Source: Bolinopsis microptera (taxonomy: Eukaryota; Ctenophora; Tentaculata; Lobata; Bolinopsidae). From it: a stretch of 64,000 nt of DNA. Under the pieces are notes generated by a model. It made no database searches, was not told the DNA's origin, and saw only the letters and a list, made by a program, of their open reading frames with translations. Shown piece by piece: positions 8,961 to 51,400 of the stretch. The stretch is from assembly GCF_026151205.1 (NCBI RefSeq), contig NC_087073.1, positions 19,124,837 through 19,188,836 on the forward strand. The letters run 5' to 3'. A program made the translations under genes and the position numbers. Numbering within the stretch: position 1 is the first letter of the stretch; each line of letters begins with the position of its first letter.

Positions 8961-9515
8961 ATTGATGGTGCAAACAGGTCTGGAACATGCAACATTCCGA
9001 TAACAAGTTCCTTCAAGCTACCAACACACCACAAAAATGGTGAAAGGCACAGTTAAGGTTTTGAATCCTTTTACAGCTTATGTTTTGCTCAATTAAATCG
9101 ATGTAGGTTAGATGTTGTAAGTCATGTTAAATATCAAATCAAAGATAGTTACATAAACATCATCGCCGCGTCTAAAAACAGTCGTCCTAAATTCTATGTA
9201 ACGGAAATTCAGAATATAACGGAAATTTTGAAACAAGATGCAAAATTGAAAACCTCGGCATTCGTTTACAAAATTTTTTCTTATAAAGTATTCAAACAAT
9301 ATACACATCATATCACAATGACCATATATGAAATAATTTTAAAAAAATCACATCAACATAAAATGAAAATCACCCTTGGGCTTGTGACTCCAAGTTCCGA
9401 TCTAGACTAACTTTGTATCACGTTGTGACCCCCACGGTCGTTTCACTTTATCGTTCTTACGATACAGATGAAGCCGCGCACTCGTGCGCGGCGGGTCATA
9501 CAACGTATGACAAGA

Positions 9516-9701
9516 TTGTATCACGTGGTGACTCCCTAAAGTTTCTTTACTGGGCCGCGCTCAGCCTGTCATTCCGCCTAATCTCTATCTCTATTATCTT
9601 TATGGACATAATAGCCTGAGGTCCCCAGGTAAGAGTTTCTACGATACAGGGGAGCCGCGCACTCGCCACTCGTGCGTGGCGGGTCATACAACGTATGACA
9701 A
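9516..9701 (+). mobile_element. Family A mini-element A2, inserted in A1 and itself host of E1
   Basis: Bounded by a perfect 8-bp duplication TGACAAGA (9508-9515 and 9702-9709), which was created inside the right end of A1. Ends are TTGTATCACG and CGTATGACAA. Family E element E1 interrupts its middle. Confidence 0.8.
9548..9633 (+). mobile_element. Family E mini-element E1, inserted in A2
   Basis: Contains ACTGGGCCGCGCTCAGCC and CCTGAGGTCCCCAGGT, shared with the 10.3-kb copy. Flanks AGTTTCTT (9540-9547) and AGTTTCTA (9634-9641) form an 8-bp duplication with one mismatch. Confidence 0.7.
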
Positions 9702-9920
9702 TGACAAGACTATCTATTATATTTCTTTCTCCATTCTCGCACCTCTAGTCTGTCTCTAACAAAATTTCACTTGGTGTTAAAGGCTTGTCATGTACTGACG
9801 GCATTATATTGGCCAAAGACAACGAATTAATGATTCGCTGTGATTATGGATTAGCTATTTTAAAAACCACAACAATATTATTAGACACATAACATGCAAG
9901 TGCTACGAAGTAGCGCGCGC

Positions 9921-10027
9921 TTGTCATACGTTGTATTACCCGCCGCGCACGAAGTGCGCGGCTCCCCTGTATCGTCGAAGACGATACACTATAGTGAAGC
10001 GACAGTGGGGGTCACCACGTGATACAA
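9921..10027 (-). mobile_element. Family A mini-element A3
   Basis: Reverse orientation: begins TTGTCATACG, ends CGTGATACAA. Flanked by GCGCGCGC on both sides (9913-9920, 10028-10035), a perfect though low-complexity 8-bp duplication. Internal hairpins: GCCGCGCAC-GAA-GTGCGCGGC and TATCGTC-GAA-GACGATA. Confidence 0.8.
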
Positions 10028-10105
10028 GCGCGCGCAGGGCCAGCTCATTAACAATGGTCAAGAAATGGCCCGAGGCAGGAGGCGAGTAAAGTGCTATGAT
10101 CGAAG

Positions 10106-10203
10106 TTGTAGCGCGATGCACTACTGGGCCGCGCCGCGCATCCAATAATGAGCTTCTCGCAACCAGATCGGCGAGATGCGAAGGATTGACATCGTGAATC
10201 AAC
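10106..10203 (-). mobile_element. Family C mini-element C4
   Basis: Starts TTGTAGCGCGATG and ends near TTGACATCGTGAATCAAC. Perfect 8-bp duplication GATCGAAG at 10098-10105 and 10204-10211. Shares GATCGGCGAGATGCG with the other C copies. No ORF. Confidence 0.8.
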
Positions 10204-10322
10204 GATCGAAGTAGCGCGCGCTTGGCTAGTCCATTAACAATGACAAAATACCTTCGAACGTTCATAATTATATTCGCGTCCACGTTTATTTAATCTCTGA
10301 TCAAATAAGATCCGATAAGGTA

Positions 10323-10415
10323 TTTACTGGGCCGCGCTCAGCCTGTCATTCTGCCTTATCTCTATTCATTTGTTTATGAATACATGATAGCCTGAGGTCC
10401 CCAGGTGAATAACAA
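10323..10415 (+). mobile_element. Family E mini-element E2
   Basis: Begins TTTACTGGGCCGCGC and ends CCCCAGGTGAATAACAA. Perfect 8-bp duplication ATAAGGTA at 10315-10322 and 10416-10423. Related fragments occur near 11735-11760, 12207-12242 and 12724-12775. Confidence 0.8.
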
Positions 10416-10507
10416 ATAAGGTATGTGCAAATATTTGTTTAATATCTAGGAACCCATGGTTAACAAATAAGTGTAAAAAACACTGATAATATAATTGTAG
10501 GTTTATA

Positions 10508-10723
10508 CTTGCTCTATCCAGAGCCCTTGCGCTTGTTGTCATACGTTGTATGACCCGCCGCGCACGAAGTGCGCGGCTCCCCATGTAGCGTCACTATAGT
10601 GAAGCGACCGTGGGGGTCACCGCGTGATACAATGCGCTTGCAGTAGCGTGCGCCCGCCTCACGGCGGGCGCGCTTGTGAAACAAGCGCACCCGTAGTGGC
10701 GCGAAAGCACATGGTTAGGTGAA
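10508..10723 (+). mobile_element. Family B mini-element B1 (host of A4)
   Basis: Begins CTTGCTCTATCCAGAGCCC and ends ATGGTTAGGTGAA. Perfect 8-bp duplication GGTTTATA at 10500-10507 and 10724-10731. Family A element A4 is inserted inside it. Confidence 0.85.
10536..10632 (-). mobile_element. Family A mini-element A4, inserted in B1
   Basis: Ends TTGTCATACG and CGTGATACAA. Perfect duplication TGCGCTTG (10528-10535, 10633-10640), which lies within B1 sequence; other B copies carry the uninterrupted TTGCGCTTGCAGT there. Confidence 0.9.
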
Positions 10724-10781
10724 GGTTTATACTCTACCAAGACGCGCGCGCCGAGTTGGATTAAACGACAGTCAATATATA

Positions 10782-10846
10782 CTTGCTTTATCTAGAGCCC
10801 TTGCGCTTGCAGTGGCGCGAAAGCACATGGTTATGTCATATGTGAA
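10782..10846 (+). mobile_element. Family B mini-element B2, short uninterrupted copy
   Basis: A 65-bp copy with the family B head (CTTGCTTTATCTAGAGCCC) and the central GCGCGAAAGCACATGGTTA. Perfect duplication AATATATA at 10774-10781 and 10847-10854. It shows the empty state of the site occupied by A4 in B1. Confidence 0.8.
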
Positions 10847-10872
10847 AATATATATTGTCACCAAGATGTAAC

Positions 10873-11075
10873 TTGTATCACGTTGTGACCCTCACGGTCG
10901 TTTCATTCACCTAACCATGTGCTTTCGCGCCACTTCGGGCGCGCGCTACTGCAAGCGCAAGGGCTCTGGATAGAGCAAGTCGTTTCACTATAGTGTACTC
11001 TACCCCTGTAGAGTTTCCACGCGATACAGGGGGAGCCGCGCACTCGTGCGCGGCGGGTCATACAACGTATGACAA
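10873..11075 (+). mobile_element. Family A mini-element A5 (host of a family B copy)
   Basis: Perfect duplication GATGTAAC at 10865-10872 and 11076-11083, inside the left TIR of the composite element. Ends TTGTATCACG and CGTATGACAA. The interior is interrupted by a family B element at 10906-10979. Confidence 0.9.
10906..10979 (-). mobile_element. Family B mini-element inserted in A5
   Basis: Begins TTCACCTAACCATG and ends GGATAGAGCAAG, the reverse of B1. Perfect duplication TCGTTTCA at 10898-10905 and 10980-10987, made in family A sequence; uninterrupted A copies read CGGTCGTTTCACT there. Confidence 0.9.
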
Positions 11076-11539
11076 GATGTAACTAGGTTGAACGGAGAAA
11101 GTAGGTCTCACGCGTGAGACCTGAGACCTAATTTAGGTCCCGAATTACAAATTAAGTCTCACGCAGGCACAGCTTTTAAGTGTATATTATGGAAGCGCAT
11201 GTGTGTCAAAAAAAATAATGATACACATGCGCTTCCTAGGTAGCGTATGTGTGTCAGAAAATTTTTTGATACACATGCGCTAGCAGGTTTATCATGTATA
11301 TCATTAGGTGGCCCATGTGTGTCATTTTTGTAAAATTGCTGTAAAATCTCTATTTAATATTCTAATCGCTATCTTTATCTATTTATATATGTATTTTATC
11401 CTTATCTCTATTTTATCTTTAAACTCCTCTCCGCTCGCCTCCCGTGTGAAACGAGCGCGCCTGCACGCTGCAGTGGCGCGAAAGCACATGCAACATGGTT
11501 AGGTTAAAGCGCGTGTACTGTTGCTGCACAGGCTATAAT

Positions 11540-11667
11540 GTTAATTGACGATGTCAATTCATCGCAGCTCGGCGAGGCACAGTAGCGCATTTCACCGATT
11601 TAGCGTTGCAAGAAGCATAATCAATAATTGAATGCGCGGCGCGGCACAGTAACGCATCGTGCTACAA
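11540..11667 (+). mobile_element. Family C mini-element C1
   Basis: Begins GTTAATTGACGATGTCAATT and ends CATCGTGCTACAA. Perfect duplication GCTATAAT at 11532-11539 and 11668-11675. Contains GCAGCTCGGCGAGGCACAGT, common to family C. Confidence 0.85.
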
Positions 11668-13121
11668 GCTATAATATTTATAAACATACTCATTGGAGAA
11701 TGGAGCTATGGAGGAATGAAGCTGCCTGCTGCGCGTGCGGTAGAATGACAGGCTGAGCGCCGCCAAGTATTGCATATTGAAGCGTGTACGCCGACGAATG
11801 ACAGGCGAGCTCCTGTGTCCTGGGATCGTGCGCGAAGATCGAAATGCAATTCATGTATCAAGCCAACTGCCAAGTGCCAACAACAATGTGTTTATTGTTA
11901 TAAATGATAATGGACTAACCCGTTTCGGGATACTTCGTAGCAACTAGCAAGCTTGCCGCGCATCGATCCAATAATGCTTCTCGTCGTAAGTAAGGCCACC
12001 TTGTTTGTCGTTAGATATAGGCAAAATGCACCCAGCACCCCTGCGGACCTCGCTGAGCTGCTATGCAAAGTGAAAAAGCAACAACTCAATGGATGGTTAT
12101 TGGTTACCCGTACCGTAATGGGTGCTACATGCCTAGCATGGAATATTTACTTACTTACTTGTGCACTTAATTTGTGTATTATATGTTCATAATCATATAA
12201 ATTCGGCGGAATGACAGGCTTGAGGCTGAGCGCGGCCCAGTAAACTTCGAATCGAAAAAATTAAACGAGTAACATCCGTCAACTAATAGTTATATGTAAT
12301 AATTAAAAACAAACTTTGCTTGTTTACCTGAACTTAGAATTTTATACAATTAATGTAAGATTAAAGTCGTGTTTTTACCAATTTCCCTGCACCATCCGGT
12401 AAATTTATTACCCTCAGCCCTTCGTTGTGGGCTGCGCGGTCGTATCGTGGCTTTAATTCGCCACGCGCGGTATAGCGGGGGCGAAATGAAATACAAATGA
12501 GGATCGCGACGCGTGACTTGTAGGTTTATAACCTACCAGGACGCGCGCCGAGTTGGACTCGTCGACGGTCCTGATTAATATTTGAAGCAAATATTTTACG
12601 ACTACAAGTATCACCCGTTAAAGAAAGGATTGGAAATTGAACTCGCCGGTACGTCGACGGATGATGCTTGTCTAAATTTGTTCGAAGTAACACGAAAAAC
12701 TTTCTTTTCGAAGCGAAATGTCTGTGTTACTGGGCGGCGCTCAGCCTGTGCCTTTTCAATGTCATTCCGCAACCGTTTATCATTTACGAACGAATAAAAA
12801 CAACGTCAATATTTTACATGTCACAGTTAGCTGGCAGTACGGCCCAGTTAATAAATTGTGCATCGCGCCGATCTAGCAAAAAACATTATTTGATGCGCTG
12901 ATCAGTCTTCTAAGACTAATAATATAAAACATTGTTTCTTTTGTCCGTAATTGCCTGTACTGCGTGAGAATTACAAAATAATTACAGCACATTTACAAAA
13001 TAAGAATAATGAAAAAGTAAACGTGTTTTCTCGGTTATAATTCATAATTATTTTTAGAATAACGCTTTATTGTTAATGCAATCATAGTGGTCAGCTTGTG
13101 ACATGGCTATGACGCCTTTTT
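11668..13121. other. Repeat-derived stretch, no gene seen
   Basis: Contains fragments of families C and E (near 11735, 11955, 12207, 12724 and 12840) and the D1 copy. The ORFs at 11898-12089 (minus), 11953-12192 and 12582-12901 (plus) read through these repeats and show no family resemblance or splice context. Confidence 0.55.
12520..12617 (-). mobile_element. Family D mini-element D1
   Basis: Shares GGACGCGCGCCGAGTTGGAC, TCGTCGACGGTCC and TATCACCCGTT with D2 at 14.7 kb in reverse orientation. A GTAGGTT-TAT-AACCTAC hairpin lies at one end. I found no clear target duplication. Confidence 0.6.
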
Positions 13122-13541
13122 CTTACATGGTTATGACATGGTTATGATATGGTTATGACATGGTTATGACATGGTTATGACGTGGTTATGACATGGTTAT
13201 GACATGGTTATGACATGGTTATGACATGGTTATGATATGGTTATGACATGGTTATGACATGGTTATGACATGGTTATGACATGGTTATGACATGGTTATG
13301 ACATGGTTATGACATGGTTATGACATGGTTATGACATGGTTATGACATGGTTATGACATGGTTATGACATGGTTATGACATGGTTATGACATGGTTATGA
13401 CATGGTTATGACATGGTTATGACATGGTTATGACATGGTTATGACATGGTTATGACATGGTTATGACATGGTTATGACATGGTTATGACATGGTTATGAC
13501 ATGGTTATGACATGGTTATGACATGGTTATGACATGGTTAC
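13122..13541 (+). repeat. 11-bp minisatellite, about 38 copies
   Basis: Near-perfect tandem copies of CATGGTTATGA, with only a few variants (ATATGG, ACGTGG) near the left edge and in the first quarter. All three frames differ because 11 is not a multiple of 3. It lies within the composite TIR element. Confidence 0.95.
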
Positions 13542-13702
13542 AACCAAAACTCCTTCAGACCAATTTTGAACCATTATGAGCACTTTCAGGATACAATTCA
13601 TTTCCGTTCATTTCCGTTCATTCTATGAACCTGGGTCATTTGGTGCGACTTTCGATGACCTCTAGGCCTAGCTTATGACACTATCTATCATAGAAAACCG
13701 AA

Positions 13703-13912
13703 TTGGGGGTTCCCAGCCCTTACGTAATAAGTCTCAAATTGAAATGACACACATGCGCCACCTATTGATTTACATGATAAACCTGCTAGCGCATGTGTGT
13801 CAAAAACAAAAGTGACAGACATGCGCTAGCAGGTTTATCATGTAAATCAATAGGTGGCGCATGTGTGTCATTTAAATTTGAGACTTATTACGTAAGGGCT
13901 TGGAACCCCCAA
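13703..13912. repeat. 210-bp near-perfect palindrome (foldback mini-element)
   Basis: Arms of roughly 100 bp run from TTGGGGGTTCC at the left to GGAACCCCCAA at the right, around a short AAAACAAAAG-type centre near 13805. Inner subrepeats such as CTAGCGCATGTGTGTCA also occur in the TIRs of the surrounding composite element, suggesting a related origin. Confidence 0.85.
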
Positions 13913-14273
13913 ATAGATAAAGATAGCGATTAGAATATTAAATAGAGATTTTACAGCAATTTTACAAAAATGACACACATGGGCCACCTAATGATATACA
14001 TGATAAACCTGCTAGCGCATGTGTATCAAGAAATTTTTTGACACACATACGCTACCTAGGAAGCGCATGTGTATCATTATTTTTTTTGACACACATGCGC
14101 TTCCATAGTATATACATGTATATCACGCGCATGCTTGAGACCTATAATTCGAGACCTATAAATTATGTCTCGCACGTGAGACCTAATTTTTCCGTTCGAC
14201 CTAGTTACATCTTGGTGATAGACAGAACAATTGTTTTAAGAGTATCTGCAATCTGGTATCAGCGGGGGTTGCT

Positions 14274-14386
14274 CTTGCTCTAACCAGAGCCCTCTCGCTT
14301 GCAGTATGCAATAGCGCGCAACCGCCGAAGGCACAGGAGGTGAACAAGCGCGTCACGCAGTGCGCGTAGACTCATGGCTAGGTTCA
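14274..14386 (+). mobile_element. Diverged family B mini-element
   Basis: Head CTTGCTCTAACCAGAGCCC and tail CATGGCTAGGTTCA match family B, with a different GC-rich interior. The flanking 8-mers do not match, so it is old or rearranged. Confidence 0.5.
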
Positions 14387-14709
14387 CTACACTTTTTTAC
14401 ACTACTTTTTGTCATTTTTTTGTAGTAGAAATGTAAAAAGTACACTTTTTAATATCAACGGATGTTACTCGTCTAAATTTCTTCGAAGTAGCGCGCGCCG
14501 CTTTCTTCTCAAAATGGCCCGACGGCACGAGCTACGAAGTAGCGCGCGCCGGGCCAGATCATTAACAATGGTCAATTTTTAATACTATTATACATTATTA
14601 TTAATTACACTTAACCAAATTATCTTCTATAAATCTTCCTTTTTCCTATTAATATTATTTTCGAATCAGTCTTCACATATAGTGCATTTCCCGAGGTAAG
14701 ACAACCTTT

Positions 14710-15463: not shown

Positions 15464-15758
15464 GGGGGCAGGGGGGGTCTTCATGGAAATTTCCTCAAAA
15501 TCGACTTTTAAGTTGTTTCTGATAGAGGGAGTGATATCTGAAAATAGACTCGATTTTCAGGGCACGCGATCAAAAATCGCTCGCGCAATACAATTACACA
15601 CAAGCGCTGACCTTTTACCGGCGATAATTTCGGCTAGGAACAATATTTTTCTATCGGATTAAAGGCATCTGATAGATATCACTCCCCTCTATTAGAAACA
15701 ACTATGTACTAAAAAGTCGATTTTGAGAAAATTTCCATGAAGACCCCCCCCTGCTCCC
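15464..15758. mobile_element. MITE with TTAA target duplication (piggyBac-like), 295 bp
   Basis: Flanked by TTAA on both sides (15460-15463, 15759-15762). Ends GGGGGCAGGGGGGGTCTTCA and TGAAGACCCCCCCCTGCTCCC are inverted repeats that continue inward for roughly 80 bp with small differences. No ORF. TTAA duplication is typical of piggyBac-type elements; the assignment is inference. A second, partial copy lies at 34527-34715. Confidence 0.8.
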
Positions 15759-26706: not shown

Positions 26707-27610
26707 TTGAATATCATAAAAATTAAAAAAACCAAAGCAACAAAGTTTCTTGGAGTTGTTATTGACGAACAGCTTTCCTGGGGGCCTCATATAACAGCAC
26801 TTAAACGAAAGTTAAACTATGCCTCTGCCACCTTAAATAGAATTAGGGACTCTGTATCGAAGGAACTCCATAAAGAACTCTACCACACACTATTTGAATC
26901 CCATCTTACATATTTTATCTCAGTTTGGGGTGATGCAGCACTCTTTAGGACAGCAAGTATCTGGCTGTCTCAGAAGCACTGCATACGGGTCCTCTTTGGT
27001 GATAAAGAGGCATACCTAAACAAGTTCCTAACATGTGCAACAACAAGAAAGTTTGACAACCAGGCACTCGACCATACATTCTTCCAACTAGAGCACTGTA
27101 AACCACTTTTCAAGCAACAAAACATCCTGGCTTTCAAAAATGTATATACATATCACACATTTATGGAAGTTTTTAAAATACTGAAACTGAGGACCTTCTA
27201 GAAGATGGCTGATAATGCTGTTGCAGTGATGCTGGGCACCTTAGTCTAAGGTGCCCAGCATCACTGCAACAGCATTATCAGCCATCTTCTAGAAAAGAAA
27301 GCAGTCTCATTTCACAACTCCCATCTAATGACTTAATATCAAGATCCACCAAAATTTGGAGTACAATTGCACCTAAACTTAAGCTTTTTGACTACTCCTA
27401 CAAGATTAGCCTTGATTCAGCATGGACCTCAAGCGATTATGACAAATTTAATCCAGTGTTCTTGGCCCACATGCACAGGTTCCTCCTATTAAACAATTTT
27501 GATTTTGGTAAATGTGTGCTGACTCCACCACCTATGTATTTAACCTAATATATTTAGTGTATTACAGGTAGACATTGACTTAGGTAGGTATTTTTATCTT
27601 TCAAAATTAG
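26707..27610 (+). mobile_element. LINE fragment 1: reverse transcriptase C-terminus and 3' UTR
   Basis: The first part translates to KKTKATKFLGVVIDEQLSW...SVWGDA, the typical thumb/C-terminal region of jockey/CR1-type reverse transcriptases. A second part (from about 27288, SRKESSLISQLPSNDLISRS) continues the same protein to a stop at 27546. The two are separated by a 99-bp palindrome. The 3' UTR continues to about 27610 and is matched in reverse at 37215-37430. The 5' part of the LINE is missing. Confidence 0.85.
27196..27294. repeat. Perfect 48-bp inverted repeat with a 3-nt spacer, inside LINE fragment 1
   Basis: Left arm 27196-27243 and right arm 27247-27294 are exact reverse complements around GTC. 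Starts TTCTAGAAGATGGCTG and ends CAGCCATCTTCTAGAA. It interrupts the reverse transcriptase frame. Confidence 0.95.
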
Positions 27611-34015: not shown

Positions 34016-34123
34016 TTGTCATACGTTGTATGACCCACCGCGCACGAAGTGCGCGGCTCCCCCTGTAGCGTCGAAGACGCTATATAATAGTGAAGCGACC
34101 GTGGGGGTCACCACGTGATACAA
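34016..34123 (-). mobile_element. Family A mini-element A6
   Basis: Begins TTGTCATACG and ends CGTGATACAA. Flanks ACCAACAA (34008-34015) and ATCAACAA (34124-34131), one mismatch. Carries the GCCGCGCAC-GAA-GTGCGCGGC and GCGTC-GAA-GACGC hairpins. Confidence 0.85.
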
Positions 34124-34229: not shown

Positions 34230-34348
34230 TTGTAGCGCGATGCGTTACTGTGCCGCGCCGCGCACTCAATGAGGCTTCTCACAGCTAGATCGGCGAGATG
34301 CGCTACTGTGCCGCGCCGAGCTGCCATGAATTGACATTGTCAATTAAA
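34230..34348 (-). mobile_element. Family C mini-element C3
   Basis: Begins TTGTAGCGCGATGCG and ends TTGACATTGTCAATTAAA. Perfect duplication GTGAGGCG at 34222-34229 and 34349-34356. Confidence 0.88.
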
Positions 34349-34526
34349 GTGAGGCGATGACATTTATCAGGAAAAGAATAAGATTTGACTTATCGAGAAC
34401 AACAATTATTGCTCTTAGATGAAAAAGAGGGATAAAAAGTGGTAGTGCAGTTAAAATATCAGATTAAGATATAAATTTAGAGCCAACAATGAACAAATTG
34501 AAGTAGCTATTTTTACTACTTTCATG

Positions 34527-34715
34527 GAAATTTTCTCAAAATCGACTTTTCCATTTTCAGTTGTTTCTAATAGAGGGGAGTAATATCTATCAGATGTTTT
34601 TAAACCCGCGGAAAAATATTGTTCCTAGCCGAAATTATTGCTGGTCAAGGGTCAGCGCGTGTGTGTAATTGTATTGCGCAAGCGATTTTCGATCGCGTGC
34701 CCTGAAAATCGAGTC
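34527..34715 (-). mobile_element. Partial second copy of the TTAA MITE
   Basis: Matches 15540-15745 in reverse (TTTCATGGAAATTTTCTCAA, AATAGAGGGGAGTAATATCT, GATCGCGTGCCCTGAAAATC). The outer G/C-rich terminus is missing and the far TIR is absent. Confidence 0.75.
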
Positions 34716-35179
34716 TAAAAATCTATATTCTCCCAAATTTTTTGAGCTATCACCCTGATACTTTCAGGATATGTTCTAGGGATCATTTAGAAGATAAGAG
34801 ATGAGCCGGGCAGAATTTTGAGATGGGCCTTTAAAATTTTTTATTCGATTTTGAAAATCGTGGACCTCGTTTTTTGATGATTTTTCGTATATTGTTTGAA
34901 TTTCTACATGATTTATGTATTCCTTAAAATGTCTCGATCACGTGATATGTGTAGAGTGATTATTCATCATTCTTCGTTGCATTCTTTATTTTGTGAGATT
35001 ACCCAGTAAAGTAAAGTAAACCCACTTTATTATTAGGAGTTTAGTGATAAATGATACAAATCCATATCATTTGATTCATGTGGCTCTAGAAAACTTATAA
35101 TTTCGTGTGGAATAAATGATGTTTAGAAACCTGCTGTTAAATCCCAGCTTGGTATATTATATGGTATTTTTAGTTTATT

Positions 35180-37214: not shown

Positions 37215-37430
37215 CCCTCCTAAATTAAATATTAAAAACGTCTCAGTAATGGAAATAGTCATACAATTAAGAAATTATCCAAATTCTTAATATCTACCTA
37301 AGAGAAAAATACCTACCTAAGTCAATTTCTACCTGTAATACACTAAATATTAGGTTAAATACATAGGTGGTGGAGTCAGCACACATTTACCAAAATCAAA
37401 ATTGTTTAATAGGAGGAGCCTGTGGGCCGA
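37215..37430 (-). mobile_element. LINE 3' end copy, reverse orientation
   Basis: Reverse complement of 27475-27600, sharing AAACAATTTTGATTTTGGTA, GTGCTGACTCCACCACC and TTAGTGTATTACAGGTAGA. It marks a 5'-truncated insertion of the same LINE family as fragment 1. Confidence 0.85.
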
Positions 37431-42400: not shown

Positions 42401-45400
42401 ATAGATATTATGATAAAACTAACTAAACACGTCTCAGAAAAACATTCGTCTTTGCTAACAACCGCCTCCCTGCTCCCAGGTCCGAGCACAGAGAAGTATA
42501 TACGTGATCAGGCGACATGCTCAACAGGTAACACTTTTTAGCCGCGTGTACGTGTTATATGATTAGTACGTGCTTTTAGCAGATCTCAGATTATTGATGA
42601 TATTATGATTATTTAATTATGCAATTACAATAACATTTAATTAAAGTCATCATGTTTTAAATACCCGGTTCAAAATGTTCTCATAACTTCGTACTTTCTG
42701 AAGGGATGGTTATACTAAATGTGAGATATAGTTCACTTTGAGTTTAGTGAGTGTAATGTGTAAGTATTCTGAAGGAAATTTCTGCCATAGACGGCCTTAA
42801 TGCGACTAGTTGGGGGTAGTGTGAATAACATATTCTATATTTATAGCACTGTAATACATTGCTTATAAATCATGCAGTTCATGGAATGTATCCCGAGAAT
42901 TTGTCATCATGGCAACAAGATCCCTTTTGGACATCAAATCAACATGACGTACTGAACATAATTACGTTGCAAGATGTAAATTTATCAATTCCTCGCATGG
43001 ACCGCAAAAATGTCCGGTATTTTGAGAATTTCGGTTTCACTGTAAATAAGTTTTGCCATACCAAACATCTCTGTAACAAACAGTGCATAATTTGGATTTA
43101 TTTCAGAATATGAAAGAGCGTAAAGCAAAACAGAAGGTAGCTCAGCTCCCTACCAGAATTCTGAAGATAAACGAGCCCTCGTCTGAGTGTACCATTTGTT
43201 TGGAGGAGAAAAAGTTCCCGTCGGTATGTGTCATTTAATGTTTTTAGTACGTGTCATTTAATGTTATTTCAATAATTATTACTTCTACAGTAAAACCCCG
43301 ATTGTTTCTAGATCGATTCCATTCCACAATACCTAGTGATTTAACATTTACAACTTGGCATTAACCTATAGAGTATAGATCTCAGTATAACCTTATTACT
43401 GACTTGTAGTAACTGCACATTCCACATCAATCAACATTTGAACATGAACTTCCAATGAACTAATAAAAGAATTGAGTTATAACTCAATAGATAAATATAC
43501 ATTAATATAAATAAATATAGTTATATTAGGATTACTCTGTGCAGTAAATACATGCTGCAGTTATTTTTCTTTGATAAGGATGGTTGACCGTATTATAATT
43601 AATGATTGGCCGTGTTTGAATATTTTATACCAAACTCTTAAGACATTTTATGAGATAAATACACTCTCATATTATCGAAATACACTCTCATATTATCGAA
43701 ATACACTCTCATATTATCGAAATACACTCTCACTGCCGTTTTAAAATTGTTAGCTCTCGTTATCGCACTGCTTATCTCTTGATAATTACACCGCTACTGC
43801 GCTGCTAGCTTGTTGTGCTGATCTTTACGATGGCAGATTTGGACTTGGAAAGTATCAATTACATGTGGAATGAGATGTTCACCTGGAGCAAAGAGACTCT
43901 GAAGAAATTTGGCAAGCCTTACGGAAAGTTAAAGGACATTGCGGACGCTAAGAACTTCAACAGACTGAATAAGCCGGAGATTGTCGATGTGTGTGGTCGA
44001 TCTTTTGAGTACACGAACTATCTTATGGAGACCGTTGAAGCGTATAAGAATGTGTTGACCAGACTTCAGCGTCAGTTAATTGAGAAGCAAGAGCAGGTTA
44101 TCAGTGTTCAGGCCGAGCTATCAGCTAGCTGATAGCAGCTTGCAAGACTGAGCAACTTGAAGCGATGAAGAAAACTGTTTCAAGTTCAGTTGCTGATTCA
44201 GTGAAAGCGGAGTTCCAATCTTACAGCTCAGTCGTTCAAAGTTTGCCAGCACAGTCTCCAGTAATCAGCCCGGAAGCATTGACGTCTGTAGTCAAAACTA
44301 TTGTTGCAGAGGAGGACCGCAGCAGGAACCTTCTTATCTTCGGTCTGCCTGAGGAAAAAGAAGAGAAGCTCGAATCTCAAGTCAGTGAAGTTCTGGAAAC
44401 TATTGGCATAAAGCCAAAAGTAGAGGCTCAGAGAATAGGAAAAAAGAAAACGGTTGACTCAACGCGACCAGTTAAAGTTATCACCTCAAACTCGCTCATC
44501 GTTAATCAGATTCTGAGGAATGCCAGGAACCTGCGGCAGAGTGAGAAGTTTAAGACAGTTTTCTTGAGCCCTGATCGGTCTGTCGAACAGAGGAAGCTCC
44601 GGAAAGATCTGGTACAGGACATGAAGAAGCGGGCACTTGCAGAACCGACCAAAAAGTTTTACATAAAGGACGGGCAAATTTATTGTGCCGATGAGAGCAA
44701 CGGTTGACAACTTTTTTTGAGTCTGTGTTTCGTGTGCTGTTTTGATATGTTTTGGACCATGTTTGTGAGGGACATATTGGTAGCTGTAGTTATTTTCTAT
44801 ACAAGACTGAATAGTCTTCAGGCTTTAGCTGAGCTTTAATTTTCGACGCAGATTTGTTGAGCCACTAGTCCATGATGGGGAATATAAACAATATATTTAA
44901 CTCTTAATGGTCATAGCTACTTTTAATTTCATGAATCATACAGATTTTAAAGTACGCTGGTACAATTTTTATCTTATTAAATTGCTGTTCAATATCTATT
45001 TTAGTAAACATTAACTGGGGTAGTAAAACCCAGTTCCCAATCAGAATATTAGCTAGGCCCAGGCCATATCACTGACCTTTAATTTTATGTCCTGTATCTG
45101 ACTGAAAAGCCGCACAATGTTTTGAGTATACGAGGTTTGTGATGTTATTTGGGTTTATTGGGGTCTATAGATCAAAAAAAATTTGGGTAGACAAAAAGTT
45201 ATGTGTCCACCAGGTCTGTGGCCACGCCCTTTTATATGATCGTGGGAAAATCTTACCTTTTCCTAATATAAATTCATATTTGCTCAATCAAAGCAAGTAG
45301 GGTATCAAAACTAATGTCCTTTGACCCAAGAAATCGATTGGTGACATCTATTTGACTTTCAGACCACTCCCAGATAAGATAACCACGCCCATAAATTACA

Positions 45401-48400
45401 ATTGAGCGTAAAAATTTCCAAAAATGTAAGCAATTTTTTTGGGCAAGTTGGGTGTTGAGACCTATGTTTTTTGACCCAAGAAATCGATTGGTGACATCTA
45501 TTCGACATTCAGACCACTCCCAGATAAGATAACCACGCCCATATTTACAATCGAGCGCCAAGAATTCCCAAATACTCATATTATGGATCTGAAGACATTC
45601 CCACTTCCGGCCCGGGGTTTGAGACTTGGAATAGCTCAAGTGACCCATCAGAAACAAATATGGCCTGGGTAGAAATTGTTACTATGGTGCAGTTTTGCGC
45701 AATTGACCACGCCCTTTTTTTGGCACTTTTGCGACTTTAAAATCAAAATAACTCCGCTTCTAATTGGAATTTAAAGCTCAACTTGGCTTTGAAGTTGTTC
45801 AGAATCATCACATTTAGGGGGGTAGAGCATATTTCTAAAGTCACTAGACATCAGGTTGTTGAGTTATGTGACCACACCCTTTTTTCTCTCGAGAGTCATA
45901 ATTTGCACACTTAATACGAGATATCTCGGCTTCTGATTGAGCTAGGTGCTTATCCGGGGCATTAACTTGTTCAAAATCATCAGTTTAAGTAGGGTAGAGC
46001 ATAATTTCAAAGTCCTCAAAGATCAGGTTGTTGAGTTTTTTGGCCAAAACCTATTTTTAAGCTCTTGCGAGTAGCAATTGCAGCGCTTAAAATTAAAATT
46101 ACTCAGCTTCTGATTGAAGTTAGGAGCTAAACTCGGGCAGCAAAATGGTCAGAATTATGATATGGAGTGGGGTAGAACGTGGTTTCAAAGTCCTCAGACA
46201 TCAGGTTGTTGAGGTATTAGGCCACACCCTATTCTTACGATATCGCGAGTAGCAATTGACACACTTAATACAAAATATATCGGCTTCTGATTGGAGTAAA
46301 GAGCTAAAATCGGGCAGCAAAATGGTCAGAATTATCATATTAAGTGGGGTTAAGCATAATTTAAAAGTCCTCAAACATCAGGTTGCTGAGGTTTTTGGCC
46401 AAAACCTATTTTAACGCTCTCGCCAGTAGCAATTATAGCACTTAAAATCAATATAACTCGGTTTCTGATCGGAGTTCGAAGCCAAGTGTCGACCGAGTCT
46501 TCGGCCTCGGCCTCGGTTTTACCGAGGAATAGCGATTTTTCCTCGGCCTCGGTCAGGCCTTGTTCGAAGCTGAATTTGGCCATTAACATGCTTATTATGT
46601 TCAGAACTATCACATTGAGAAGTGATCTCAAAGTCCTCTGGTATCAGGTTTATGAGTTAATAGACCATAACCTTTACGCGACCAAGACAAAGCTACTTGT
46701 CTATGTAGGGCCTGTCGTGATATCATGGATCGCTTAGGTTCCACCAGGATCTGGTAGTCCTCATAATTCTGCGGCCTCTATGTTTCGTCATCTCGCACAA
46801 CTCTTTAAGAATCTTGTGGATTTGGCATGTGAAAATTTGCAGCCTTCCAGACATTGATATCACGACAGGCCCTATTGTCTATGTTACTGAAGGTAGTTGG
46901 GACAACCGACAAACTCTAAAGATGAACTGCGAACCTTGATGCGGGACAGGGATATATGGAGGGGGTTATCTGGCGTAGATCGGACTTAGTTCTGACATAG
47001 TAGTAGTAGTATTAGTAGTTTACGCATCTGTGATAACAGCATTTCATAATGAAATACTAAGATATCTCCGCTTCTGGTTGGAGTTGAGTGTTAATCTTGG
47101 ACATTAAAATGATCAAAGCTTCGCATTGAATAGAGTACACAGACATCAGGTAGAACCATGATCTAGCCTCTACTCCCCTTACTGCTATAATTCTAAATAT
47201 CTTCATGCCCAGGCTAAGCACCGAACTCCAATCAGAAGCCGAGATACCTTTTAATGAGTTTTGTAATTGTTGCAAGTAAGTGCTTAGAAATATGGTGTGG
47301 CCTAACAACTTAACAACCTGATGACTGAGGACTTTGAAACCTAACTTAATGTGATAATTCTGACCATTTTACTGCCCGAGTTTAGCTCCTAACTCCAATC
47401 AGAGGCTGAGTAATTTTAATTTTAAGCACTGCAATTGCTACTTGCAAGAGCGTAAAAATAGGTTTTGGCCAAAAACCTCAGCAACCTGATGTTTGAGGAC
47501 TTTTAAATTATGCTTAACCCCACTTAATATGATAATTCTGACCATTTTGCTGCCCGAGTTTAGCTCTTTACTCCAATCAGAAGCCGATATATTTTGTATT
47601 AAGTGTGTCAATTGCTACTCGCGATATCGTAAGAATAGGGTGTGGCCTAATACCTCAACAACCTGATGTCTGAGGACTTTGAAACCACGTTCTACCCCAC
47701 TCCATATCATAATTCTGACCATTTTGCTGCCCGAGTTTAGCTCCTAACTTCAATCAGAAGCTGAGTAATTTTAATTTTAAGCGCTGCAATTGCTACTCGC
47801 AAGAGCGTAAAAATAGGTTTTGGCCAAAAAACTCAACAACCTGATCTTTGAGGACTTTGAAATTATGCTCTACCCTACTTAAACTGATGATTTTGAACAA
47901 GTTAATGCCCCGGATAAGCACCTAGCTCAATCAGAAGCCGAGATATCTGGTATTTAGTGTGCAAATTATGACTCTCGAGAGAAAAAAAGGGTGTGGTCAT
48001 ATAACTCAACAACCTGATGTCTAGTGACTTTAGAAATATGCTCTACCCCCCTAAATGTGATGATTCTGAACAACTTTAAAGCCAAGTTGAGCTTTAAATT
48101 CCAATTAGAAGCGGAGTTATTTTGATTTTAAAGTCGCAAAAGTGCCAAAAAAAGGGCGTGGTCAATTGCGCAAAACTGCACCATAGTAACAATTTCTACC
48201 CAGGCCATATTTGTTTCTGATGGGTCACTTGAGCTATTCCAAGTCTCAAACCCCGGGCCGGAAGTTATATAGACGGGAATGTCTTCAGATCCATATGAGT
48301 ATTTGGGAATTCTTGGCGCTCGATTGTAAATATGGGCGTGGTTATCTTATCTGGGAGTGGTCTGAAAGTCAAATAGATGTCACCAATCGATTTCTTGGGT

Positions 48401-51400
48401 CAAAAAACATAGGTCTCAACACCCAACTTGCCCAAAAAATTGCTTACATTTTTGGAAATTTTTACGCTCAATTGTAAATATGGGCGTGGTTATCTTATCT
48501 GGGAGTGGTCTGAAAGTCAAATAGATGTCACCAATCGATTTCTTGGGTCAAAAAACATTAGTTTTGATACCATACTTGCTTTGATTGAGCAAATATGAAT
48601 TTATACTAGGAAAAGGTAAGATTTTCCCACGATCATATAAAAGGGCGTGGCCACAGACCTGGTGGACACATAACTTTTTGTCTACCCAAATTTTTTTTGA
48701 TCTATAGACCCCAATAAACCCAAATAACATCACAAACCTCGTATACTCAAAACATTGTGCGGCTTTTCAGTCAGATACTTGATAATATATCATTCTGAAT
48801 TACGCAAATAATGTTGCGTGTGAGTAGTGAATTCTGGGCTGAGAAATATCCCGAGAAACATTACACAGATAGAAAAGGCGATATATGAAACTTGTAATCG
48901 CTTCCTACACTGTACAGTGTACAATCTTTCCTAGAAATATTTGAATTGATTCAGGTAATACAATAATCATACCTATAAAACTATGTGGCCCCCTCGTACT
49001 GAAGTATCTCCTTAACTTACTGTAACATTTTGATGATGTCTCCAGACTATCACCTGATGTAGGCAGTAAAGGACCGATCAGCCGATAACTCTAAAATCTG
49101 AAATGAAACTTAGAATTATAATCGAAAGGGAAAGCTTGTGGATATAAATTTTTATCCGTCTCCTTTGGGGTTGTTTCCTCCGCCCTATATGGTGTTTTCA
49201 GTACAACAATTAAAACAAGGATTTGAAGTACTTTGCCAACAGGATTTGGGCTGGCTGGTCTAATACAAATTGTTAAAATTTTGATGCTATTAAAATAAGT
49301 TCAACTTTCCACATTTTGGCTTGCCCGATTCATTATCAGATCAGCACGAAAATTGTATTGTCAATACATGAAACATTAACGTGCAGCACGTACAGCAAAC
49401 AGTGTGTGTTCATGTTAATTAACACTGTTATTGTGTAACTCAATATTCTCATTTGTGACGAGCTGTGTACCTGTGTAACGGAGCTGTATAGTTGGAGTTG
49501 TGCCAAGTTATACTCCTCCTCCTCACATTTCAATATAACTCATTTCACGCAAAACATAATGTAGTGTCAAACCCTGTAGTGTGCACACTGTTATATATAA
49601 CATATATATATATATGTTAGACCATAATATATTACATTATCTCATACCGTGTAGTGTCGATACTGGGTGTGTGATTTGAAAGGATCTCTTTTCCTCAGAC
49701 TTTTCCTCAGACCCTACCTCATCTTCCATGCCGTACCAACCTGCAACAAACGTGATAATAGTCCAATGAGATGGTAAGGTCACGTCATCTGAGTGTTGAT
49801 TTGGTGTTCTTTGCACGAGCACTGTACAGAGCTGTACAGTTGGAGAGATTCAAGTGAGAGGAGTCTGTCGACGTCATACGGTGCACTGCACGTGACACTG
49901 CAATCACGTGACACTGCAGTCACGTGACACTAAGCTGCAGAGCTGCAGTCTCACTTTAGTGTGAGTGTAAACTATTAGCCGGGTTTTATAATAAGAAGTC
50001 GCACTTTGCTGGTCTCATTTATTGGCGCCCTCAGTCACACCCTCCACAACAATTATTTCATCTCAACTTCATACCTAGTCACACCCTCCTCAGTACTTGT
50101 TCCACATTTACTTCACTCTCTGTAGCAAATGTTCCTCCTTATCTTTGCCCTCACCCTGAGGTGCTTATCTATCGGATGAAGAATTTCGATGGGGCCGGAA
50201 TCATATCCACTATCCAGAACAAAGGTTCCAGAATGAAGGTTCCAGAATGAAGGTTCCAGAATAAAGGTTCCAGTTGATTACTGTTCAATGTTCATTGTTT
50301 CAACTTTACTTCGCTCGACTTGTGCTGCTAATCTACGGGAATCAGGATTTCACTCAAACCACCGCCTAAACTAATGTTTCAATCGGGCCGGATTTAGGAG
50401 CCAAACTGAAATTTCAATTAGGACGGAATAATATCCATATAATTTAGATGACGTATTTTATGCGAAGTACGTGCTAAGATGATGTAACTGTGATGTTAAT
50501 CGTTCTAATAAAGTTGACGGCTTTTCACTCAACCTACCTTTGAACTGTCTGCAGTCTGGTCCTCGTTTTCCTGCATTCTTTCCACGTGAGGTTTTAGTGC
50601 GAGACTCGTTGAAATGGAACGATAAGTTCGGCGTGCAATCGGGCTATTAAATTGTTTCACATCGTGACTCGTGTATCATGTTCTACTTACATTCTCTCTC
50701 AAGTCTGCCGACCCGGATGAATAGAAATTGTGAATCATTCATTTTAATGTCACTAATTCCCGGGGCAGGGCCGAGTTGGAACTACATGTTGTGATTACGT
50801 CATGGATAAGTTACGTGACTCATTACAATGCCCAGCCGCTGCACCGTAAAACTAAAGATTTCACGTGTCTAGAAATGTGTCTGATGATGAGTTTATAATG
50901 CACTCCCATTCGACAAAGAGATCTCTCAAAGGGTGCATCTGAGCCGTTCCGTGCAAAAGTATTTAATTAATATTGGTGGTCTATTTTAAAGTGATGGTCT
51001 ACATATAACGTACAGTGATGGCATATATATTTAAAAGTAATGGTAATGTTTCACGCGGAGTAGTGTATGACGTTGTGTTGGACATCAGTGCTTAGTACAT
51101 AATGGGGCATTAAGTTATGGAAGTTGGATGTAAACGCTAAGTTATTAGTCGTGAACTAATGGAAGTTGGATGTCACTGACGATTTGGTGCCTTGATTTAA
51201 CCGTACTTTTTACTGTGATCTTTTAGTGCCACTGATATTGGGTGTCGCCAATATGAGTGTCACTGATATTGGGTGTCACCAATATGAGTGTTACACCAAA
51301 ACTAAGGAAATGTAACATACACTACTCTGGCTTCGTGGCGCGAAGGTTCCCTTTTGTTGCCGCATTGTCACTAGTGACATACCTACAGCCCGGATGAAAT

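What the first reader, a model, noticed from the sequence alone, without database searches (positions are those of the whole stretch)
9405..11083. Reciprocally nested families of hairpin-rich mini-transposons with 8-bp target duplications
Family A (ends TTGTATCACG / CGTATGACAA) is inserted into family B (A4 in B1, duplication TGCGCTTG), and 200 bp away family B is inserted into family A (duplication TCGTTTCA in A5). Each host is itself bounded by its own perfect 8-bp duplication (GGTTTATA; GATGTAAC). Reciprocal nesting shows that both families were active in overlapping periods and land in each other. The 8-bp duplication points to hAT-like or P-like transposases, but the termini match no family that I can name.
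Basis: partly seen in the sequence, partly recalled or inferred. Interest (0 to 1): 0.85.

Follow-up and report, generated by a model that had tools for sequence, protein, structure and literature searches.

The report
Mutually nested hairpin mini-transposon families
The stretch is a pile-up of very short, gene-less jumping DNA elements from several families that have landed inside one another in both directions; they are real and abundant in this animal genome, but of a familiar general kind, and the enzyme that moves them has not been found.

Summary
A4 sits in B1 (TGCGCTTG), B2 sits in A5, and both hosts have their own target-site duplications (TSDs). The assembly (264.65 Mb) holds 1305 exact-ended A copies and 52 B copies; reversed-pattern controls are 0. 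In the DNA I held, A makes 8-bp TSDs (39 of 73 perfect at 8, 3 at 9). B mainly makes 9-bp TSDs (19 of 37 at 9, 3 at 8), so both B duplications in the finding are 9 bp. Empty sites: 36 of 98 TSD-bearing copies match an uninserted relative; mis-joined controls 0-5 of 98. Reciprocal nesting is general: 20 of 128 copies lie inside families A-D, in eleven directions; controls 1-4 of 128. Families C (9 bp) and D (8 bp) lie in the same 1.7 kb. A de novo scan gave seven families with TT...AA ends and at least one with other ends. These are MITEs moved by an unidentified, probably DDE-type transposase with symmetric target preference. The hAT-or-P guess is not supported: B and C make 9-bp TSDs, no P-type domain was detected (controls silent), the few hAT and MULE loci read have other ends, and no autonomous partner was found.

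The parts
9413..9513 (+). A1: family A MITE, TSD GACTAACT (9405-9412) / GACTATCT (9708-9715), 7 of 8; its right border carries A2
   Evidence: TSD read by hand
9516..9701 (+). A2: family A MITE inserted at the right border of A1, TSD TGACAAGA (9508-9515 and 9702-9709)
9547..9632 (+). D1: family D MITE (TTACTGGGCC...CCCAGGTAA) inserted in A2, TSD AAGTTTCT/GAGTTTCT, 7 of 8
9921..10027 (-). A3: family A MITE, TSD GCGCGCGC on both sides
   Evidence: uninserted relatives found
10106..10202 (+). C1: family C MITE (TTGTAGCGCGATGC...), TSD TGATCGAAG/CGATCGAAG, 8 of 9
10324..10408 (+). D2: family D element; its right end is irregular, a possible 9-bp duplication ATAAGGTAT lies at 10315-10323 and 10416-10424
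   Evidence: duplication read by hand
10509..10723 (-). B1: family B MITE, interrupted by A4; TSD GGTTTATAC, 9 bp (10500-10508 and 10724-10732)
10536..10632 (-). A4: family A MITE inserted in B1, TSD TGCGCTTG; the joined flanks match uninterrupted B copies at 98%
10873..11075 (+). A5: family A MITE, interrupted by B2; TSD GATGTAAC (10865-10872 and 11076-11083)
10906..10978 (+). B2: family B MITE inserted in A5, TSD GTCGTTTCA, 9 bp; the joined flanks match uninterrupted A copies at 92%
34016..34123 (-). A6: a further family A copy in the window, TSD ATCAACAA/ACCAACAA, 7 of 8
34230..34347 (+). further family C copy, perfect 9-bp TSD AGTGAGGCG

Best explanation
The region is a nest of miniature, non-coding DNA transposons (MITEs) of families A, B, C and D, moved in trans by cut-and-paste transposition. 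A transposase dimer brings together the two TT-ended termini of an element and cuts a target with nicks staggered by 8 bp (A, D) or 9 bp (B, C); gap repair makes the duplication. Targets are weakly palindromic: for C and D a pyrimidine three bases before and a purine three bases after the duplicated stretch; A and B have preferences at other positions. Because the elements are numerous and contain good targets, they land in each other, and some positions in A are hit repeatedly (GTSGTGAY in its left end, GTCGTTTCA further in). Shown: repetition, TSDs and their lengths, empty sites, mutual nesting, target symmetry. Inferred: that the enzyme is of DDE type, of the hAT/P/MuDR kind, and that related enzymes serve all families. 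Not found: the transposase itself.
For: Copy number: A 1305 and B 52 exact-ended copies, reversed-pattern controls 0. TSD length (perfect 8 / perfect 9): A 39/3 of 73, B 3/19 of 37, C 3/16 of 40, D 13/2 of 32; mis-paired flanks at most 0.17%. Empty sites: 36 of 98 against 5, 0, 3, 3, 1 of 98 mis-joined. Nesting: 20 of 128 copies with a TSD of at most one mismatch lie in a family A-D host (A in A 3, A in B 2, A in C 1, A in D 2, B in A 2, B in C 2, B in D 1, C in A 2, C in B 1, D in A 3, D in C 1); controls 4, 1, 3, 1, 4 of 128. Hot spot: of 18 A left ends with a foreign interior I fetched 8; four carry a TSD-flanked insert at one position: two A (7 of 8 and 8 of 8), one C, one of another family. 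B2 in A5 and a D in L006 used the same second site of A. Target symmetry: C 38 of 42 (p 5.7e-8), D 29 of 32 (2.6e-6) at three bases outside; B 40 of 48 at the adjacent base (3.3e-6); A 79 of 110 at five bases outside (purine/pyrimidine, 5.3e-6), 75 of 110 at the first TSD base (1.7e-4), 72 of 110 at three bases outside (1.5e-3). The p-values are not corrected for ten position pairs per family nor for related sites.
Against: No autonomous element was found. The 18-bp right end of A with a foreign interior occurs at 14 places; 4 were read, and the only one with a frame over 300 aa is a LINE fragment inside an A copy. A similar C search gave 4 places, 2 read, no transposase. The loci were fetched through A and B, so nesting and family frequencies are not a random sample. 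34 of 73 A copies lack a perfect 8-bp TSD; 20 of 73 have fewer than 7 of 8. The symmetric target position differs between families, which argues against one identical enzyme. The palindrome inside an end is strong at one end of A and of C (score 7, reached by 1% of random windows), moderate at one end of B (5; 8%), and weak at both D ends, C's left end and A's and B's other ends. At least one TSD-bearing family in the de novo scan lacks TT ends.
Confidence: 0.93

Rival explanations
1. The mobilising enzyme is a Mutator-like (MULE) transposase that recognises only a short end shared with its autonomous element.
For: 88 MULE-domain matches. Sampled MULEs appear to make both 8-bp (TAATATTG in L071, TTCATATT in L095) and 9-bp (AGTTTTTAT in L070) duplications, the same mixture as A/D and B/C; the L095 register was chosen by eye among several. 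A 9-bp TSD fits MULEs better than hAT or P (recalled).
Against: 7 of 88 MULE loci read; 4 have recognisable ends, three with GG at both ends and L069 with GG at one, with long repeated arms in L070, L071 and L095; none has paired A-D ends. Single one-mismatch hits to A-, B- or D-type ends occur in L072, L094 and L095; C and D ends were not looked for in L069-L071.
Confidence: 0.35
2. The mobilising enzyme is hAT-like.
For: 150 scored hAT dimerisation-domain matches; A and D make 8-bp TSDs; P and hAT insert into a 14-bp motif that includes the TSD (passage of PMC3706591), the length of TSD plus 3 on each side seen here for D. Single one-mismatch hits to an A end lie downstream in L077, L080 and L081.
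Against: B and C make 9-bp TSDs. In 8 hAT loci (L078 and L083 proved to be one family) about 1.2 kb after the transposase domain hold no exact A end and no B end. The L081 hit is not an element end: a second copy is 100% identical through and beyond it; L077 and L080 were not so tested. By eye L078 and L083 end in a CAAGGGTCG-type terminus, the usual hAT kind (recalled).
Confidence: 0.2
3. The mobilising enzyme is P-like.
For: 8-bp TSD of A and D.
Against: 0 matches to the P-type RNase H domain PF21787; but no control genome rang either, so this is weak. B and C make 9-bp TSDs.
Confidence: 0.07
4. The elements are not transposons but segmental or replication-slippage products (hairpin-driven duplication), with chance flanking repeats.
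For: Elements are palindrome-rich; a few copies are segmental duplicates (L010/L011, L033/L036 share flanks); interiors show slippage-like repeats.
Against: TSD statistics, family-specific TSD length, empty sites and target symmetry.
Confidence: 0.02

Closest known systems
MITEs (miniature inverted-repeat transposable elements), general class
   Same: short, non-coding, high copy, TSD-flanked, hairpin-forming, nested in each other
   Different: terminal inverted repeats are short and imperfect (A: TTGTATCACG against TTGTCATACG, 7 of 10); hairpins lie inside the element and inside single ends rather than between the two ends alone
hAT-derived MITEs
   Same: 8-bp TSD in A and D
   Different: termini TTG/TTA, not CA; families B and C make 9-bp TSDs
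Mutator/MULE-derived MITEs
   Same: 8- and 9-bp TSDs; MULEs present in the genome
   Different: the few MULE ends read here begin mostly with GG and several have long repeated arms
P superfamily
   Same: 8-bp TSD; 14-bp target motif (passage of PMC3706591)
   Different: no P-type domain detected (controls silent); 9-bp families
Dada superfamily (PMC3706591, passages read)
   Same: DDE transposons related to hAT, P and MuDR, with sub-terminal inverted repeats
   Different: 6-7 bp TSD, specific RNA-gene targets

Membership tests
MITE | short (<500 bp), no coding capacity, many copies with conserved ends | tested here: met
   1305 exact-ended A copies within the 90-120 bp searched; 52 B copies
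MITE | constant-length target-site duplication | tested here: met
   A and D mainly 8 bp, B and C mainly 9 bp
MITE | terminal inverted repeats | tested here: inconclusive
   by hand from the ends: A 7 of 10, B 7 of 11, C 4 of 10, D 6 of 10 positions match
MITE | derivation from an autonomous element with a transposase | tested here: inconclusive
   none found through shared 16-19 bp ends; 10 of 14, 1 of 1, 10 of 18 and 2 of 4 places were not read
hAT | 8-bp TSD | tested here: inconclusive
   met by A and D, not by B and C
hAT | CA...TG-type termini and a hAT transposase between such ends | tested here: not met
   A-D termini are TT...AA; 8 hAT downstream flanks hold no exact A and no B end; most hAT loci were not read
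MULE | 8-11 bp TSD (range recalled) | tested here: met
MULE | MULE transposase between matching ends | tested here: inconclusive
   7 MULE loci read, none with paired A-D ends; 81 of 88 matches not read
P superfamily | P-type transposase in the genome | tested here: inconclusive
   0 matches, controls silent
KDZ/Zisupton | KDZ transposase in the genome | not tested
   the search (PF18758) did not complete
Merlin | IS1595-type transposase in the genome | not tested
   the search (PF12762) did not complete

The most novel reading that the evidence does not exclude
At least seven MITE families with TT...AA ends, 8- or 9-bp TSDs and symmetric target preferences (palindromes inside an end seen in A, B and C) are the visible part of an uncharacterised transposon superfamily. 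Its transposase shares almost no end sequence with its passengers, or has been lost, and the families persist by feeding on one enzyme pool and on each other's sequence as landing sites.
Probability: 0.15. Interest if true: 0.65.

Novelty: new member of a known kind. Interest (0 to 1): 0.4.

Why it matters
If right, this animal (probably a ctenophore) carries a guild of mini-transposons whose mutual nesting gives a relative-age network for many families at once, and whose mobilising enzyme is an open question that a full transposase survey of the genome could settle. In another ctenophore, M. leidyi, over 90% of looping promoters are reported to carry DNA-transposon insertions (PMC12221973, passage read), so knowing such families has practical value. 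As a kind of system, gene-less nested MITEs are well known.

Tried and rejected
Autonomous A element through its 18-bp right end with a non-MITE interior: 14 places, 4 read. L076 looked like a 3364-bp element with a 671-aa frame and perfect TSD, but the frame reads as a reverse transcriptase (by eye, no profile search) and the LINE sits inside an A copy with its own short duplication (TATGA), so it was rejected. The A right hairpin with an odd interior gave 1 place, not read. Left-end search: 18 places, 8 read: L085, L086, L090 and L092 carry TSD-flanked inserts; L087 begins an end like that of a further family (TTGTAGGTTTA) at the same spot but its right side is lost; L088 has a short tandem repeat; L089 and L091 are changed A ends; no transposase seen. 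C end: 4 places, 2 read, no transposase. MULE and hAT flanks: no paired A-D ends; single one-mismatch hits are listed under the rivals; one of them was tested and rejected. TT...AA elements over 300 bp in held DNA: 303 candidates, the top ones being nested MITEs, the LINE case, one further TT-ended family (L048/L064) or chance. Rfam: 0 matches at 9000-14500 at gathering score. Viral and prokaryote collections: 0 exact matches to an A end pattern each. A link between the 11-bp minisatellite at 13125-13540 and the B end was considered and dropped for lack of evidence. Literature: 'TTGTATCACG' gave 9 papers, unrelated by title (listing only). Searches on ctenophore or Mnemiopsis MITEs listed no paper whose title or abstract start describes such families (listings only; lists capped); 'mite' does not occur in the main text of PMC11797021, PMC12221973, PMC11184263 or PMC13231562.

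Full report
WHERE. The window lies on contig C2 of a 264.65-Mb assembly of 232 contigs. Contigs C1-C13, whose lengths are listed, sum to about 258 Mb, 97.5% of the total. Bolinopsis microptera has 13 chromosome-scale scaffolds with 97.23% of bases (figure legend of PMC10232365, passage read) and 265 Mb (table in PMC11797021, passage read). I infer a ctenophore, probably this species or a near relative; no tool named it, and the scaffold number in that table (346) differs from the 232 contigs here. Some frames of the window hold TBC, NTF2 and RRM domains, as in animals.

OBSERVATION. The described elements exist as described. In full: A1 carries A2 at its right border, and A2 carries D1; A3 stands alone with TSD GCGCGCGC; C1 follows; D2 has an irregular right end; B1 carries A4; A5 carries B2. 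The interval 9405-11083 runs exactly from A1's left duplication to A5's right duplication.

FAMILY SIZE. The full-length pattern for A gives 650 + 655 places, the reversed control 0 + 0; for B 28 + 24, control 0 + 0. These are lower bounds because exact ends and a limited length were required.

TARGET DUPLICATIONS. I collected copies of A, B, C and D in all DNA then held (about 0.35 Mb; copies with identical flanks counted once; L001, and also L049, left out because they lie in the window). Perfect 8 / perfect 9: A 39/3 of 73; B 3/19 of 37; C 3/16 of 40; D 13/2 of 32. Flanks paired at random between copies match perfectly in at most 0.17%. So A and D mainly make 8-bp, B and C mainly 9-bp duplications. 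Where several right ends were possible, the script preferred one with a perfect TSD, which favours TSDs slightly; an earlier scan without that preference gave 33 of 55 for A.

EMPTY SITES. For 98 copies with perfect TSDs I removed element and one TSD and searched the joined flanks: 36 hit an uninterrupted relative across the junction at 85% or more (A 22, B 7, C 4, D 3), against 5, 0, 3, 3 and 1 of 98 for mis-joined flanks. A looser criterion without control gave 48 of 98, A4 and B2 among them.

NESTING. Of 128 copies with a TSD of at most one mismatch, 20 lie inside an A, B, C or D element; mis-joined controls 4, 1, 3, 1, 4 of 128. Directions seen: A in A, B, C, D; B in A, C, D; C in A, B; D in A, C. 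A-B, A-C, A-D and B-C are reciprocal; several directions rest on one case. A4 in B1 and B2 in A5 are among the 20. The sample is biased, since loci were fetched because they hold A or B.

HOT SPOT. A left ends with a foreign interior number 18 in the genome. I read 8. Four have a TSD-flanked insertion at one and the same position of A, duplicating GTSGTGAY: L085 (A, 7 of 8), L090 (A), L086 (C), L092 (another family). L087 begins a further family's end there but has lost its right side; L088 has a short tandem repeat; L089 and L091 are changed. A second site, GTCGTTTCA/TCGTTTCA in A, was used by B2 and by a D element in L006.

TARGET SYMMETRY. Beyond the TSD, family C has a pyrimidine three bases outside on the left and a purine three bases outside on the right in 38 of 42 positions, D in 29 of 32. 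B instead has purine/pyrimidine next to the TSD in 40 of 48. In A the strongest preference is purine/pyrimidine five bases outside (79 of 110), then the first and last TSD base (75 of 110); the C/D position is weak (72 of 110). p-values are not corrected for the ten position pairs per family. Such symmetry is what a two-fold symmetric transposase complex would leave; that its position differs between families suggests related rather than identical enzymes.

SHAPE. An alignment of 60 A copies shows constant ends and, in nearly all copies, a GC-rich hairpin (GCCGCGCAC..GTGCGCGGC), with a variable middle. A script found a perfect stem of at least 5 pairs in the middle part of 38 of 60; TATCGTC/GACGATA and TAGCGTC/GACGCTA both occur, a two-sided change. 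Uncompensated cases also exist (L009). Palindromes starting two bases from an end are strong at the right ends of A and C, moderate at B's, and weak elsewhere, D included.

A GUILD. Looking without end motifs for 45-420-bp segments flanked by 8/9-bp repeats and recurring with at least three different TSDs, 48 clusters arise, which merge to 11. Seven have TT at both ends (A, B with its sister, C, D and three more); one is a shifted C variant; one has TT at one end in the register found; one lies inside A and is an artefact; one (CGCTCC.../GGCTCT..., 363-389 bp, three different TSDs) has other ends.

TRANSPOSASE. Not found. MULE domains: 88 matches, 7 loci read, 4 with recognisable ends, GG at both ends in three. 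hAT domains: 150 scored matches, 8 downstream flanks read, no exact A and no B end; of three single one-mismatch A-end hits, the one tested is not an element end, because a second copy is identical through it. P-type domain: 0, controls silent. KDZ and Merlin searches unanswered. The superfamily therefore stays open; MULE is my first guess because the sampled MULEs, like these MITEs, seem to make both 8- and 9-bp TSDs.

VERDICT. A sound observation of an ordinary class (MITEs) with an above-average twist: several families with one type of end, mutually nested, with no visible driver.

Noticed in passing
window 45094-48778: Large imperfect palindrome: outer arms 99% complementary over 300 nt, inner arms carrying 177-178-bp tandem units. 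Perhaps a foldback-type element.
   Followed up: no
window 11180-14115: Element with 205-nt inverted arms, 98% complementary, enclosing an 11-bp minisatellite of 38 copies (13125-13540); no clear TSD found.
   Followed up: partly
L070, L071, L095: MULE-bearing elements with GG ends, long repeated inverted ends, and 8- or 9-bp TSDs in the registers chosen.
   Followed up: partly
L076: A truncated LINE with a 671-aa frame that reads as a reverse transcriptase lies inside an A copy; the A copy keeps its own 8-bp TSD.
   Followed up: yes
L048 311-622 and L064 192-516: Another TT-ended element of 312-325 bp with a palindrome inside its end (TTGTAGGATGAAATCCTAC) and TSD GATGTGCC in both loci.
   Followed up: no
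L050 1862-2235, L059 1068-1456, L007 2418-2780: A family of 363-389-bp segments with CGCTCC/GGCTCT ends and three different 9-bp TSDs, so not of the TT...AA type.
   Followed up: no
L098 about 108-211: A second copy of the L081 hAT family holds about 100 bp that the first lacks, i.e. a filled/empty pair; not identified.
   Followed up: no
window 10783-10840: A B-like sequence without a recognisable TSD, whose end is degraded, between B1 and A5.
   Followed up: no
window 15545-15741 / 34521-34717 and 27474-27551 / 37347-37424: Dispersed inverted repeat pairs of 197 nt (89%) and 78 nt (99%).
   Followed up: no
family A hairpin GCCGCGCAC..GTGCGCGGC: In M. leidyi, loop anchors share a GC-rich motif with two CpGs bound by CTEP1/2, and looping promoters are rich in DNA transposons (PMC12221973, section 9 and passages read). 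Whether that motif occurs in these MITEs could not be tested: its letters are not in the text I read.
   Followed up: no
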